A stretch of DNA of 64,000 nt from Thiomicrorhabdus sp. Milos-T2. GTDB lineage: Bacteria > Pseudomonadota > Gammaproteobacteria > Thiomicrospirales > Thiomicrospiraceae. The DNA lies in the NCBI RefSeq assembly GCF_000702325.1, contig NZ_KL370892.1:310001-374000 (forward strand), given 5' to 3'. The position numbers and the translations under genes are program-made. The notes beneath the pieces were generated by a model. It was not told where the DNA came from, did no database searches, and saw only the letters and a list, made by a program, of their open reading frames with translations. How positions within the stretch are numbered: position 1 is the first letter of the stretch; each line of letters starts with the position of its first letter. Shown one piece after another: positions 2,756 through 50,101 of this stretch.

Positions 2756-2934
2756 GAGACCTTTGCACGAGACTATGCGCGAGTAAAAATGGTTCTAGGT
2801 GCCCCTTGAGGGTAAAAATTCACCTGATTTTTGTTGAAAACCTTGTGAATAGCTAGCTATTCCCTGCGTTTTCCGCCGCAATCAGGCAAATTTTCCCTCA
2901 TTTTTCTTTCGCACCTATCTCGTGCAAAGGTCTC
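2756..2934 (+). mobile_element. MITE-like element, copy A
   Basis: 179 bp with perfect 17-bp terminal inverted repeats GAGACCTTTGCACGAGA and no coding capacity. It is flanked by the 5-bp direct repeat AAATT (2751-2755 and 2935-2939), which shows transposition. The centre has the palindrome GAATAGCTAGCTATTC. It carries a 20-bp nested insert at 2795-2814 that is absent from copy B. Orientation is arbitrary: '+' is the direction in which the CGAGTAAAAATGG side comes first. Confidence 0.9.
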
Positions 2935-3719: not shown

Positions 3720-3878
3720 GAGACCTTTGCACGAGAGTATGTACGAGTAAAAATGGTTAAAATTCACCCGATTTTTGTTGAAAAACTTGCGAATAGCTAG
3801 CTATTCCCTACGTTTTCCGCCGCAATCAGGCAAATTTTCCCTCATTTTTCTTTCGCACCTATCTCGTGCAAATGTCTC
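3720..3878 (+). mobile_element. MITE-like element, copy B (minimal form)
   Basis: 159 bp, the shortest full copy and without nested inserts, so it serves as the reference form. The ends are GAGACCTTTGCACGAGA and its complement with one change (AATGTCTC). The 5-bp target duplication AATAA is at 3715-3719 and 3879-3883. It fills most of the gap before the DUF4197 gene. Confidence 0.9.
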
Positions 3879-7598: not shown

Positions 7599-10439
7599 AT
7601 GACCGATTCCAATGCGCAAATTTCTTTTAACGCCGACAGCCCTTTTATTTTAGTGGACGGTTCTTCTTATTTATTTAGGGCTTTTCATGCCATGCCACCA
7701 CTCACCAATGGCAAGGGACAAGCAACGGGAGCCATATTTGGTGTGATTAATATGCTCGGTAAGCTCATTGAACAGTATCAACCCAAAAAGATGGCTGTGA
7801 TTTTTGATGCTAAGGGAAAAACCTTTAGACATGAGATGTACGATGAGTATAAAGCCCACCGCCCACCAATGCCGGATGAGCTAAGATCTCAAATTGAACC
7901 TATTCATGAAATTGTAAAAGCTTTAGGCTTACCACTTTTGGTCATTGATGGCGTTGAGGCTGACGATGTAATGGGAACCTTTGCGCAACAAGCAACAGAA
8001 GCCAAACATGACACCTTAATATCAACCGGTGATAAAGATTTAGCGCAATTAGTGAATGAACACGTTACTTTAATTAACACCATGAATGACACGCTTTCTA
8101 CACCAGAGAGCGTGGTTGAAAAGTTTGGTGTACGTCCTGACCAAATCATTGATTACCTAGCTCTAGTTGGTGATAGCGCCGATAATATTCCAGGGATTCC
8201 AAAATGTGGCCCTAAAACAGCGGTTAAATGGCTGACCTCATTTGGCAATATTGATAATTTGATAGCGAACGCCCCAATGATTGGTGGCAAAATTGGTGAA
8301 AACCTGCGCAACAACCTAGACCAACTCGCTCTTTCTAGAGAACTTACTACCATTAAATTAGATTGTGACTTGCCCGTTAGTTTGGATGATATTCAACGTA
8401 CTCAGCCCGATATGGCTCGTTTACAAGAACTGTTTACCGAATACGATTTACGTAACTGGCTAAACCAAGTCATGAATGGTCAAGTGCCTTTTTCAAAAAC
8501 TACTGGTGCTAAAGCACACAGTCAAACCGTACAAAAGCAGTCTAATGGAACTAAGGATGATTCAAATGTTGAAGCTAACACTCAAACAGAAGCCATTACA
8601 GCGAGTGCCGTTGAATCAAACTATGAAACCATATTAACAGCAGAAGACTTTGAAACTTGGATAGAACGGATTGAAAATGCTGAACTATTTGCCATAGATA
8701 CTGAAACCACCTCTTTAAATACACTTCAAGCGAAAATAGTCGGGGTTTGCTTAGCGGTAAAAGACCCTGAAAACCCGGGTAACCAGGCCTGCTATATTCC
8801 GCTTACTCACGATTATGAAGGAGCCCCTGAACAACTTGATATTGACAGGGTGCTAAACCGATTAAAACCCATCTTAGAAAACCCAAATGTAGCTAAATGC
8901 GGTCAAAATCTTAAATATGATTGGCATGTGTTGCAAAATCATGGCATTTCACTTAAAGGGATGCAGTTTGACACCATGCTGGAATCCTACAGTTTAAACA
9001 GTGTTGCTACTCGCCATAATATGGATGATTTAGCATTAAAATACCTAAATCATCGCACCACGCATTTTGAAGAGATTGCCGGTAAAGGTAAAAAGCAACT
9101 TACCTTTAATCAAATTGAAATTGAAACAGCGGCGCATTATGCCGCAGAAGATGCAGACATTACTTTGCAACTACATCAAACACTTTGGCAGCAATTAGAA
9201 GCAGAACCGACTATTAAAAAGGTATTTACCGACATAGAAATGCCTTTAATGCCTGTTTTAGCACACATGGAACGTAATGGTGTCTTACTTGATACTGATA
9301 TGCTCGCTGTGCAAAGTGAAGAAATTAGCAAGAAGTTAACAGAACTCGAACAAAAGGCACATTTAATCGCCGGAGAGGTCTTTAACCTTAACTCTTCGAA
9401 GCAATTACAGGTTATTCTATTTGAAAACTTAGAACTTCCTATTATTAAAAAAACCCCTAAAGGTGCACCCTCAACTGCAGAACCGGTATTAGCTGAGCTA
9501 GCGGAACAAGGCCATGAAATGCCAATTCTTATTTTAGAGTATCGTAGCTTAGCTAAATTAAAATCAACCTATACAGATTCTTTACCTAAACAAGTTGATC
9601 CAAATACCGGTCGAGTTCATACCTCTTATATGCAAGCTGTCGCCTCTACGGGACGTTTATCTTCTACCGAACCGAACCTTCAAAACATTCCTATTCGTTC
9701 TGCAGAAGGTCGTCGTATTCGCCAGGCTTTTATAACCAGGCCTGGTTATAAAATGGTTGCTGCGGATTACTCACAAATTGAGCTTAGAATTATGGCCCAC
9801 CTTTCAGGAGATGCGGGGTTATTAAAAGCCTTTGCGGAAGGTAAAGATATTCACCAAGCCACTGCAGCAGAAATTTTTGGCGTAACTTTAGAAGAAGTCA
9901 CTACAGAACAACGTCGCAGTGCCAAAGCCGTTAACTTTGGTTTAATTTACGGAATGTCTGCCTTTGGGTTAGCTAAACAGTTAAATGTAGGGCGACACCT
10001 TGCACAAGAATATATAGACCTTTACTTCTCACGCTACCCTGGCGTTTTGCATTATATGCAAGAGACTAAAGAGCAAGCAAAAGAGACCGGTTATGTAGAA
10101 ACTCTCTTAGGACGCAGATTGTACTTGCCAGATATCAATGCTCGTAATGGTCAACTAAGACAGTACGCTGAACGTACTGCAATAAATGCACCCATGCAAG
10201 GAACCGCGGCAGACATTATTAAAACCGCCATGATTCAAATTGAAGGTTGGTTGCAGAGTTGTACTTTTGATATTCAAATGATTATGCAAGTACACGATGA
10301 ATTGGTTTTTGAAGTGGCTGAAGACCAATTAGAAGCGGTTAAAGCAGAAATTAAAACTTTAATGGAATCGGCATTAACACTTAAAGTGCCGTTAATTGTA
10401 GAAATTGGTGAAGGCAATAACTGGGATGAAGCCCATTAA
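7599..10439 (+). CDS. polA: DNA polymerase I
   Basis: 946 residues with all three domains. The 5'-3' flap nuclease (about 1-290) begins ILVDGSSYLFRAFHAMPP. The 3'-5' proofreading exonuclease (about 330-520) keeps the acidic motif FAIDTETTS, so proofreading is probably intact. The polymerase domain has motif A (DYSQIELRIMAHLSGD), motif B (RRSAKAVNFGLIYGMSAFG) and motif C (VHDELVFEV). A Gln/Thr-rich spacer lies at about 303-340. The iterated palindrome occurs in frame at 9735-9746, encoding part of TRPGY. It acts in replication and repair. A strong hairpin terminator follows. Confidence 0.98.
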   Translation: MTDSNAQISFNADSPFILVDGSSYLFRAFHAMPPLTNGKGQATGAIFGVINMLGKLIEQYQPKKMAVIFDAKGKTFRHEMYDEYKAHRPPMPDELRSQIEPIHEIVKALGLPLLVIDGVEADDVMGTFAQQATEAKHDTLISTGDKDLAQLVNEHVTLINTMNDTLSTPESVVEKFGVRPDQIIDYLALVGDSADNIPGIPKCGPKTAVKWLTSFGNIDNLIANAPMIGGKIGENLRNNLDQLALSRELTTIKLDCDLPVSLDDIQRTQPDMARLQELFTEYDLRNWLNQVMNGQVPFSKTTGAKAHSQTVQKQSNGTKDDSNVEANTQTEAITASAVESNYETILTAEDFETWIERIENAELFAIDTETTSLNTLQAKIVGVCLAVKDPENPGNQACYIPLTHDYEGAPEQLDIDRVLNRLKPILENPNVAKCGQNLKYDWHVLQNHGISLKGMQFDTMLESYSLNSVATRHNMDDLALKYLNHRTTHFEEIAGKGKKQLTFNQIEIETAAHYAAEDADITLQLHQTLWQQLEAEPTIKKVFTDIEMPLMPVLAHMERNGVLLDTDMLAVQSEEISKKLTELEQKAHLIAGEVFNLNSSKQLQVILFENLELPIIKKTPKGAPSTAEPVLAELAEQGHEMPILILEYRSLAKLKSTYTDSLPKQVDPNTGRVHTSYMQAVASTGRLSSTEPNLQNIPIRSAEGRRIRQAFITRPGYKMVAADYSQIELRIMAHLSGDAGLLKAFAEGKDIHQATAAEIFGVTLEEVTTEQRRSAKAVNFGLIYGMSAFGLAKQLNVGRHLAQEYIDLYFSRYPGVLHYMQETKEQAKETGYVETLLGRRLYLPDINARNGQLRQYAERTAINAPMQGTAADIIKTAMIQIEGWLQSCTFDIQMIMQVHDELVFEVAEDQLEAVKAEIKTLMESALTLKVPLIVEIGEGNNWDEAH
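9735..9746. repeat. Iterated palindrome inside polA (20-bp extended form)
   Basis: Perfect ACCAGGCCTGGT within a 20-bp palindrome at 9731-9750, read as codons for I-T-R-P-G-Y. It shows that the motif is tolerated in an essential coding region between motifs of the polymerase domain. Confidence 0.9.
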
Positions 10440-48708: not shown

Positions 48709-48735
48709 TCGTCACTGGATTTAACTATTTAATTT

Positions 48736-48744
48736 ACCAGGCCT
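48736..48744. repeat. Left half of the palindrome split by IS110
   Basis: ACCAGGCCT, continuing at 49976-49980 as CTGGT after the element. Joining the flanks with one CT restores a 22-bp perfect palindrome identical in core to the iterated motif. Confidence 0.9.
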
Positions 48745-48756
48745 TATATGTTGAAA

Positions 48757-48960
48757 GTGTTCTCCAGAAGTGGAGAATTTATTAAGGACGCTTAGTAAAG
48801 GGATAAAGAGATCTTGCTACCAGGCCAATGACACCCAGAGTGATCCAGGTTATCAGATTAAGACCTTTATCCCCACACACTATAAACTGAACGGTATCTT
48901 AGGCAGGACAAGACTCCTAGCCTGTATTCATAAGGTTAGTATAGCCATAGTGTGAACTTA
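48757..48960 (+). ncRNA. Predicted IS110 bridge RNA with target and donor loops
   Basis: Three structured parts are visible. (1) 5' hairpin TTCTCC/GGAGAA at 48760-48777. (2) Target loop closed by GGGATAAAG (48800-48808) and CTTTATCCC (48865-48873), containing TACCAGGCC (48818-48826), identical to the left target, and CCAG (48845-48848), complementary to CTGG on the right. (3) Donor loop closed by CACACTAT (48876-48883) and ATAGTGTG (48947-48954), containing ACGGTATCT (48891-48899), identical to the right end of the element, and ATAAG (48930-48934), complementary to CTTAT at the left end. Exact transcript ends are unknown. Confidence 0.85.
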
Positions 48961-49002
48961 CTAAACGAAATTAAATCCTAGCATAAAATAGGTATTTCGA
49001 AC

Positions 49003-49953
49003 ATGAAAATATACATCGGCATAGACATCAGCAAAGACACCTTTGACGTAGCGGTTTCAACTCAAAAGCAAAGTGTCACTTTTAATAACACCCCAGCGGG
49101 GTTTAAAAAGTTTATCAAATGGATGAGCCTTTTTGATTCTCCACACATCGCGATGGAAGCCACCGGGAAATACTATTTAGGCCTCGCATTGCATCTTTAC
49201 GAACAAGAATACCCTGTGTATGTGATCAACCCATTTAAAATCAAACATCATGCACAATCCAAACTAAAGCGTGTTAAAACCGACAGTGAAGATGCTAAGC
49301 TCATCGCAGATTTTTGTGAAGTACACAAACTCAAACCTTGGCAGCCTGACAGTCCGATTATCGCTAAGCTACAAGAGTTCTCAGCACTTCAATCCTTGTT
49401 AATTCAAACAAAAACCCGCATTAAAAACCAAATGCAAAGTTCGACAGAAATTGAAGTACAGAAAATTCAAATAGCTCAGATTAAACAGTTAGAAAAGCAG
49501 ATTGAAAAGATTCAATCCCAAATGAAAGGCTGCGTTCAACAGGATGTTGAATTGGCTAAGCAGATGGCATTATTAAAGTCCATTAAAGGACTGGGTGAAA
49601 AAACAGCGATTGAACTCATCACTCATATCAAAGACATTTATCGTTTTGATAATGCAAAGGCCTTAGCCTGTTACTCTGGTCTTGTTCCACAAATACAGCA
49701 ATCGGGTAGTAGTTTAAATCGCTCATCGCTTTCAAAAATGGGCAATGCAAATTTAAGGAAGTGTCTCTACATGCCTGCGGTAAATAGTATTGCATACAAC
49801 CCTGTCTTAAAATCCTTTGCAGACAATCTGAGAAAAAGAGGGGTTGCAGGTAAGAAGATAGTTGCCGCGGTAATGCGCAAATTAATTCATCTGGTTTATG
49901 CTATTCTGAAGAGTGGTAAACCCTTTGATCCAGAATATAAGATTGGTGCTTGA
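49003..49953 (+). CDS. IS110-family transposase (bridge-RNA-guided recombinase)
   Basis: 316 residues, intact. N-terminal RuvC-like DEDD domain: YIGIDISKDTFDVA (Asp8), MEATGKYY (Glu), KTDSEDAKLIADF (two Asp). A helical coiled-coil region follows (about 145-185). The C-terminal Tnp20 domain has SIKGLGEKTAIELIT, ALACYSGLVPQIQQSGSS and SLSKMGNANLRKCLYM, the last including the candidate catalytic serine region. It should act with the RNA encoded just upstream. No stop or frameshift, so the element may be active. Confidence 0.95.
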   Translation: MKIYIGIDISKDTFDVAVSTQKQSVTFNNTPAGFKKFIKWMSLFDSPHIAMEATGKYYLGLALHLYEQEYPVYVINPFKIKHHAQSKLKRVKTDSEDAKLIADFCEVHKLKPWQPDSPIIAKLQEFSALQSLLIQTKTRIKNQMQSSTEIEVQKIQIAQIKQLEKQIEKIQSQMKGCVQQDVELAKQMALLKSIKGLGEKTAIELITHIKDIYRFDNAKALACYSGLVPQIQQSGSSLNRSSLSKMGNANLRKCLYMPAVNSIAYNPVLKSFADNLRKRGVAGKKIVAAVMRKLIHLVYAILKSGKPFDPEYKIGA

Positions 49954-50101
49954 CTATGAAAATCAAACACGGTATCTGGTAAATTGAGTTGAATATTTAA
50001 TAAATACCCATACAAATAGATATGCGCTATATCATTAACTTTATCAGTTAATAGCCTATACAAATATTCAAATAAAAGACCAATTAAAAGACCTATTCCT
50101 T

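What the first reader, a model, noticed from the sequence alone, without database searches (positions are those of the whole stretch)
48736..49980. IS110 element whose bridge RNA is readable and targets the genome's iterated palindrome
Seen: removing the element and one CT restores a 22-bp perfect palindrome with core ACCAGGCCTGGT, the same motif found 14 other times in this window. The non-coding left end has two loops closed by perfect stems. The first contains TACCAGGCC (left target) and CCAG (pairs with CTGG on the right). The second contains ACGGTATCT, identical to the element's right terminus, with the match running on as TA into the left end (11 nt across the predicted circle junction), and ATAAG, complementary to CTTAT at the left end. 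Known: IS110 recombinases use bridge RNAs with target and donor loops, and CT cores occur. Inference: this IS is programmed for a highly repeated landing site, giving it hundreds of safe intergenic targets while each insertion destroys a palindrome.
Basis: partly seen in the sequence, partly recalled or inferred. Interest (0 to 1): 0.93.

Follow-up and report, generated by a model that had tools for sequence, protein, structure and literature searches.

The report
Bridge-RNA jumping gene targeting iterated palindrome
A small bacterial jumping gene carries an RNA guide that matches a short palindrome repeated hundreds of times in its host's genome, and nearly all of its copies examined there sit in that palindrome; this resembles the known E. 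coli element IS621, but the palindrome itself is unexplained and the guide may follow local versions of it.

Summary
Window 48745-49977 is a 1,233-bp IS110-family element. Removing it and one CT restores a 22-bp palindrome whose 12-bp core occurs 14 other times in the window and 498 times in the genome. Its left end folds like an IS621-type bridge RNA, with target and donor guides in loops. Of 9 readable copies (7 complete, 2 with assembly gaps), 9 follow (T/A)ACCAGGC-CT and 8 continue GGT. The ninth interrupts an ORF at a guide-matching, non-palindromic site. A same-genus element with related RNA but other guides sits at its own guides' match, not in a palindrome, though its host has 557. So the guide sets the site. 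IS110 elements guided to repeated palindromes (IS621/REP) are known: a new member of a known kind. Two additions: the guide base outside the core agrees with the commoner of two host flanking bases (T or G) in three hosts (one variant copy differs); and the palindrome is a HIP-like motif, at 100 or more copies in 25 of 62 family genomes but at most 5 in 365 others, with another form in a relative. 'Safe intergenic' is half true: 43 of 88 sampled palindromes lie in ORFs.

The parts
48745..49977 (+). whole IS110 element with one copy of the CT core (1,233 bp)
   Evidence: 7 complete copies of the same length in the genome with the same ends
48743..48744 (+). CT core, left junction
   Evidence: shared dinucleotide at both junctions
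49976..49977 (+). CT core, right junction
48733..48742 (+). left target flank, TTTACCAGGC
   Evidence: (T/A)ACCAGGC in 9 of 9 readable copies of the genome
49978..49985 (+). right target flank GGTAAATT
   Evidence: GGT in 8 of 9 readable copies
48751..48960 (+). predicted bridge RNA, about 210 nt (both ends inferred from the junction promoter and the last stem)
   Evidence: fold z -3.2; covariance model matches
48760..48777 (+). 5' stem-loop of the bridge RNA
   Evidence: 7 pairs unchanged in 5 of 5 sequences
48800..48873 (+). target-binding loop with its closing stem (48800-48808 with 48865-48873; 48812-48815 with 48860-48863)
   Evidence: two pairs changed on both sides between hosts, all cells paired
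48818..48826 (+). left target guide TACCAGGCC
48845..48848 (+). right target guide CCAG (pairs with CTGG)
48876..48954 (+). donor-binding loop with its closing stem (48876-48883 with 48947-48954)
48891..48901 (+). left donor guide ACGGTATCTTA, identical to right end + core + left end of the circle
48930..48934 (+). right donor guide ATAAG (pairs with CTTAT, 48743-48747)
49003..49953 (+). IS110 recombinase ORF, 316 aa (PF01548 + PF02371)
   Evidence: related to ISCro4 9t56 and IS621 8wt6
49950..49955 (+). TTGACT, -35-like box of a promoter completed only in the circle (17 nt to TATCTT across the junction)
   Evidence: same spacing in the NP51 element; activity not tested

Best explanation
This is an IS110-family (IS621-like) insertion sequence. 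Its recombinase excises the element as a circle. The circle joins the right end (TTGACT...TATCT) to the left end and so completes a sigma-70-like promoter that makes a bridge RNA of about 210 nt from the left end. The donor loop pairs with the circle junction (ACGGTAT-CT-TAT). The target loop pairs with ACCAGGC-CT-GG, which lies across the centre of a palindrome present about 500 times in the host. Recombination at the CT core inserts the element into the palindrome. Shown here: anatomy, insertion sites, guide-to-target and guide-to-donor matches, conserved structure. Inferred from homology: excision, RNA production, catalysis.
For: PF01548 and PF02371 hits and relation to the solved IS621 and ISCro4 recombinases. 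9 of 9 readable left junctions end (T/A)ACCAGGC-CT (8 T, 1 A) and 8 of 9 right junctions read CT-GGT; in the relative NP51, 7 of 7 left ends follow ACCAGGC-CT and 10 of 10 right ends precede GG. Empty site restored exactly. Left-end fold z -3.2, 0 of 200 shuffles as stable; 180 of 180 cells paired, two compensated pairs in the target-loop stem, none when the partners are slid. A covariance model of this left end matches 5 of 32 other IS110-type loci scanned at E <= 0.01 (L050, L065, L051, L101, L074). Guides move with targets: the G032 element L051 has guides TTGACCACC and GTAG and sits at TTGACCA-CT-ACACC (8/9 and 4/4), while this element's guides fit that site only 2/9 and 2/4. NP51 copy L054 has guide GTCACCAGGCC and flank GTCACCAGGCC. 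G011 copy L050 has right guide CCCAG and right flank CTGGG. The ninth own copy sits at a guide-matching site that is not palindromic.
Against: No RNA, circle or transposition data. The left guide mismatches the second core base (CA against CT), as in L050 (CA) and L051 (CC), whereas IS621 strongly preferred core pairing (PMC11208160, passage). The inner 176 nt fold only moderately better than shuffles (z -2.35). In one search shuffles reach the observed number of pairs changed on both sides in 241 of 500; the 5 rows are closely related. The promoter scan of the linear element found no more sites than shuffles (4 against a mean of 3.7); the junction promoter was found by eye. 26 of 32 other IS110-type loci gave no match to the RNA model at E <= 1. 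Copies in one genome are not fully independent.
Confidence: 0.94

Rival explanations
1. The recombinase recognises the palindrome (hairpin, cruciform or a bound protein), and the matching left-end segment is incidental.
For: 8 of 9 insertions in this genome are in perfect palindromes.
Against: The ninth copy is at a non-palindromic site that matches the guide. 996 of 1,247 ACCAGGCCTG sites are in palindromes anyway, so 8 of 9 is about what guide matching alone predicts. In G032, with 557 palindromes, the one IS110-type copy found sits elsewhere, at its own guides' match.
Confidence: 0.04
2. The target-like segment in the left end is a captured copy of a target, or a leftover repeat, with no guide role.
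For: The segment is identical to the flank, and the palindrome is frequent in the genome.
Against: It lies at the homologous place in the target loop in own, NP51, G011 and G032 elements, and changes with the flank where both can be read. A separate right guide and two donor guides are also in place.
Confidence: 0.02

Closest known systems
IS621 (E. coli), IS110 family
   Same: Recombinase family; left-end RNA with 5' stem-loop, target and donor loops; CT core; short right target guide (4 nt); target in a repeated palindromic element (REP); promoter completed on circularisation (PMC11208160, passages)
   Different: The target is a perfect palindrome found in and between genes rather than a REP; the left guide mismatches the second core base; the recombinase is distant (phmmer 180.6 bits, E 4e-52)
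ISCro4 (9t56)
   Same: Closest solved recombinase by sequence (194.4 bits, E 3e-56)
   Different: Target and RNA not compared here
ISPpu9, ISPpu10, ISPa11 and other REP-targeting elements
   Same: Insertion into much-repeated palindromes (PMC1525189 abstract; PMC11187229 passages)
   Different: Different hosts, different repeats; IS1111-type members have the RNA downstream of the gene (PMC11187229 passage)
HIP1 of cyanobacteria (for the palindrome, not the IS)
   Same: Short GC-rich perfect palindrome at high copy number, replaced by another palindrome in some relatives; near-matches deviate mostly at the outer positions (PMC4390886 abstract and section 2.5.3)
   Different: Different sequence and phylum; strongly enriched between convergent genes; no PF00145 match at E <= 1e-20 in 7 of 10 palindrome-rich genomes searched

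Membership tests
IS110 family with bridge RNA | DEDD RuvC-like domain plus Transposase_20 domain | tested here: met
   PF01548 100.5 bits and PF02371 77.4 bits, both over cut-off
IS110 family with bridge RNA | non-coding left end upstream of the gene with a 5' stem-loop and two looped stems | tested here: met
IS110 family with bridge RNA | target guides match the insertion site and covary with it among relatives | tested here: met
   only five guide types (own, NP51 main, L054, L050, L051), four of them for the same core target
IS110 family with bridge RNA | donor guides match the circle junction | tested here: met
   11-nt left donor guide and 5-nt right donor guide
IS110 family with bridge RNA | scarless insertion at a dinucleotide core | tested here: met
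   CT at both junctions; palindromic empty sites restored on joining the flanks for 8 of 9 copies
IS110 family with bridge RNA | RNA binds the recombinase; circle intermediate | not testable with these tools
   needs bench work
REP element (for the palindrome) | confined to extragenic DNA | tested here: not met
   43 of 88 sampled copies inside ORFs of at least 100 aa (simple ORF calling)
HIP (for the palindrome) | short perfect palindrome at very high copy number in and between genes | tested here: met
   498 copies in 2.66 Mb, 0 for the reversed control
HIP (for the palindrome) | alternate palindromes in relatives that lack the main one | tested here: met
   G027: 0 ACCAGGCCTGGT but 1,025 ACCGGCCGGT. 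Seen in one genome only; no comparable palindrome in 100-kb samples of G030, G031 and G051
HIP (for the palindrome) | matching DNA methyltransferase in the genome | tested here: inconclusive
   no PF00145 match at E <= 1e-20 in 7 of 10 palindrome-rich genomes searched, this one included; N4 and N6 methyltransferases not tested

The most novel reading that the evidence does not exclude
The bridge RNA of this IS lineage co-evolves with its hosts' versions of a family-specific iterated palindrome. The guide base outside the core is T where TACCAGGCC prevails and G where GACCAGGCC prevails. The palindrome is an unrecognised genome-wide signal of this sulfur-oxidiser family, with different forms in different species, so that the element follows a moving but abundant target.
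Probability: 0.35. Interest if true: 0.72.

Novelty: new member of a known kind. Interest (0 to 1): 0.52.

Why it matters
It is a clean natural case of a bridge-RNA element whose guides can be read against every readable copy in the genome, with in-genome and in-genus controls indicating that the guide and not the palindrome sets the site. How natural bridge RNAs acquire new guides is, as far as I know (recalled, not searched), little studied; a lineage whose guides seem to follow the host's version of one abundant motif makes that testable by sequence comparison. It also exposes an iterated palindrome, abundant only in one family among the genomes sampled, whose own function is unknown.

Tried and rejected
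Rfam: no bridge-RNA match; the only hit at E <= 1 was a microRNA model far below its gathering score. Class-wide protein search at E <= 1e-80: only this genome (1 of 369). Viral contigs gave 10 distant relatives at 27-30% identity; 7 of the 10 were scanned with the RNA model, without a match at E <= 1. Plasmid hits at 35-39% (12 records) were not pursued. Of the 80 loci (the best 80 of 99), only some were scanned with model R1; one search used 45 sources in all, 13 of them own or NP51 copies. Of the other 32, six matched at E <= 1 (L050, L065, L051, L101, L074, L076); L191, L195, L196 and L197 did not; L200 was not scanned. L065 has a recognisable left end but its guides fit the flanks only partly by eye and it was left out of the table; L101, L074 and L076 were not analysed further.

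Tests that gave little or mixed results: G at the outer position in 4 of 6 NP51 insertions is not above that host's background (P 0.32); in this genome T in 8 of 9 gives P 0.016. C after CTGG, expected from the NP51 right guide, was first counted as 2 of 7 (P 0.14); with three right ends fetched later it is 4 of 10 (P 0.012), but three of these share one longer repeat, and counting them once gives 2 of 8 (P 0.18). The host-tracking idea rests on three hosts; only T and G were counted genome-wide, A and C were not; and the NP51 variant L054 has C. A dense signal in G051 (98 per 100 kb) was a CRISPR-like array. In G008 an 11-mer resembling the G007 motif was seen in 9 one-kb bins, but several unrelated 11-mers had the same count, so it may be a transposon. 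A C5-methyltransferase explanation of the palindrome is not supported.

Literature: no paper held has ACCAGGCCTGGT; 106 hold one of CCAGGCCTGG, ACCGGCCGGT or ACCAGGCCTG, the 15 listed being on unrelated subjects and 91 not seen; none has Thiomicrorhabdus with IS110. Searches for palindromes, iterated palindromes or uptake sequences were seen as listings, capped; of these papers I opened PMC4390886 (abstract, one section, one passage) and PMC6501319 (passages), which do not mention this palindrome in what I saw.

Full report
What is there. Window 48745-49977 is an IS110-family element of 1,233 bp. Its 316-aa ORF (49003-49953) matches both defining domains and is related to the solved ISCro4 and IS621 recombinases. 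The genome (2.66 Mb, two contigs) holds 7 complete copies, 97-100% identical in protein, and two more whose interiors are runs of N in the assembly. A 37-bp truncated left end lies after CTACCAAGCC beside the copy in L006 and is not counted among the 9. The host is in the same genus as G034, whose contigs have the same lengths as those of Thiomicrorhabdus sp. NP51. In the family, 7 of 62 genomes have an IS110-type gene.

Insertion sites. Of 9 readable left junctions in this genome, 8 read TACCAGGC-CT and 1 reads AACCAGGC-CT; of 9 right junctions, 8 read CT-GGT and 1 reads CT-GTT. The exception, L001, sits in an ORF (334 codons stop to stop across the joined site); L008 sits at the last codons of a 306-codon frame; the other seven have no frame longer than 60 codons across the site. 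The genome has 498 exact ACCAGGCCTGGT and none of the reversed control. ACCAGGCCTG occurs 1,247 times on the two strands, 996 of them within those palindromes, so guide matching alone would put about 80% of insertions in palindromes.

The RNA. The left end folds into a 5' stem-loop, a target-binding loop and a donor-binding loop (z -3.2; the inner 176 nt alone z -2.35), the order reported for IS621-type bridge RNAs (PMC11208160, passages). Between this genome's copies and those of NP51, 36 proposed pairs are all kept (180 of 180 cells); two pairs in the target-loop stem change on both sides, and no slid structure shows any such change. The alignment has only 5 distinct, closely related rows, and shuffles reach the observed number of both-side pairs in 241 of 500 (the number of such cells and the covariation score in 6 of 500). 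Left ends of own and NP51 elements are 83% identical, the ORFs 63% in DNA; of the aligned left-end columns 22 of 44 differ in the target loop and 10 of 182 elsewhere. A covariance model from these rows matches, among 32 other IS110-type loci scanned, G011 L050 (91.5 bits), L065 (34.7), G032 L051 (26.8), L101 (23.1), L074 (22.5) and weakly L076; E-values are rough.

Guide and target move together. This element: guides ACCAGGCCA and CCAG, site ACCAGGC-CT-GG (8/9, 4/4). NP51 main type: GACCAGGCCT and GCCAG; left flanks GACC in 4 and AACC in 2 of 6 copies. NP51 L054: guide and flank both GTCACCAGGCC (11 of 11). G011 L050: right guide CCCAG, right flank CTGGG. G032 L051: guides TTGACCACC and GTAG, site TTGACCA-CT-ACACC (8/9, 4/4), while the palindrome guides fit that site only 2-3 of 9 and 2 of 4. 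G032 has 557 palindromes, so palindromes alone do not attract an IS110 element; this control is one insertion by a recombinase 34% identical to this one.

Host tracking (suggestive). Sites ACCAGGCCTGG preceded by T and by G number 572 and 123 in this genome, 171 and 434 in G034, 42 and 149 in G011 (whole genomes, both strands; A and C not counted there; in samples T is 0.49 here and G is 0.49 in G034, the commonest base in each). The guides have T, G and G respectively. Against it: three hosts only; NP51 L054 has C; the left insertion preference is above background only in this genome (8 of 9 T, P 0.016; NP51 4 of 6 G, P 0.32). On the right, NP51 insertions have the C expected from the guide in 4 of 10 (P 0.012), or 2 of 8 if copies in one shared repeat are counted once (P 0.18).

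Circle promoter. Joining the ends gives TTGACT, 17 nt, TATCTT, in own and NP51 elements alike. IS621 excision is reported to reconstitute a promoter (PMC11208160, passage). A generic scan of the linear element found nothing beyond shuffles.

The palindrome. In the family, 41 of 62 genomes hold at least one copy, 25 of 62 hold at least 100, and 21 of 62 hold none. In a class-wide draw of 369 genomes, of which 4 are in the family, the other 365 hold at most 5 copies. In 464 kb of this genome 88 copies were found, 43 in ORFs of at least 100 aa and 45 between them; density per 100 kb is 138 between convergent genes, 67 between tandem genes, 29 between divergent genes and 11 in ORFs (simple ORF calling). 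One-mismatch neighbours number 43 against 88 exact, 36 of the 43 at the outer two positions. G027 has none of it but 1,025 ACCGGCCGGT; G007 has an asymmetric relative, AAAATCTGCCAGGCTGGGG-like (31 CCAG(G/C)CTGG in 200 kb); 100-kb samples of G030, G031 and G051 showed no comparable palindrome. It behaves like the highly iterated palindromes of cyanobacteria (PMC4390886, abstract and section 2.5.3), but 7 of 10 palindrome-rich genomes searched, this one included, have no PF00145 (C5 cytosine methyltransferase) match at E <= 1e-20. Its function remains open.

Verdict. The IS is a new member of the IS110/IS621 kind, and being guided to a repeated palindrome has precedent in IS621 and other REP-targeting elements (PMC11208160 passages, PMC1525189 abstract, PMC11187229 passages). 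The guide-versus-palindrome controls, the possible host tracking and the unexplained palindrome are the parts worth following.

Noticed in passing
whole window; 14 sites from 2723 to 61808: The iterated palindrome ACCAGGCCTGGT is abundant only in one family among the genomes sampled, has another form in at least one relative (ACCGGCCGGT, 1,025 copies in G027) and an asymmetric relative in G007, and is densest between convergent genes.
   Followed up: partly
window 2756-2934, and seven further centres at 3793, 4806, 19365, 21313, 38859, 46629, 52379: A second repeat, MITE-like: GAGACCTTTGCACGAG ends facing each other around ATAGCTAGCTAT; 30 centres in a 400-kb sample of the genome. A similar end sequence occurs in G011 locus L191.
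   Followed up: no
L006:622-658: A 37-bp truncated left end of the same IS lies after CTACCAAGCC, probably an older insertion at a one-mismatch target.
   Followed up: partly
L001: The one copy outside a palindrome interrupts an ORF that looks like a conjugation relaxase with an HD domain, near an integrase-like ORF (my reading; no family search run).
   Followed up: no
L228 (G051), from about position 9900: CRISPR-like array with a 60-bp period, 97 repeats sharing CTGCCGCCAAGGCAG.
   Followed up: no
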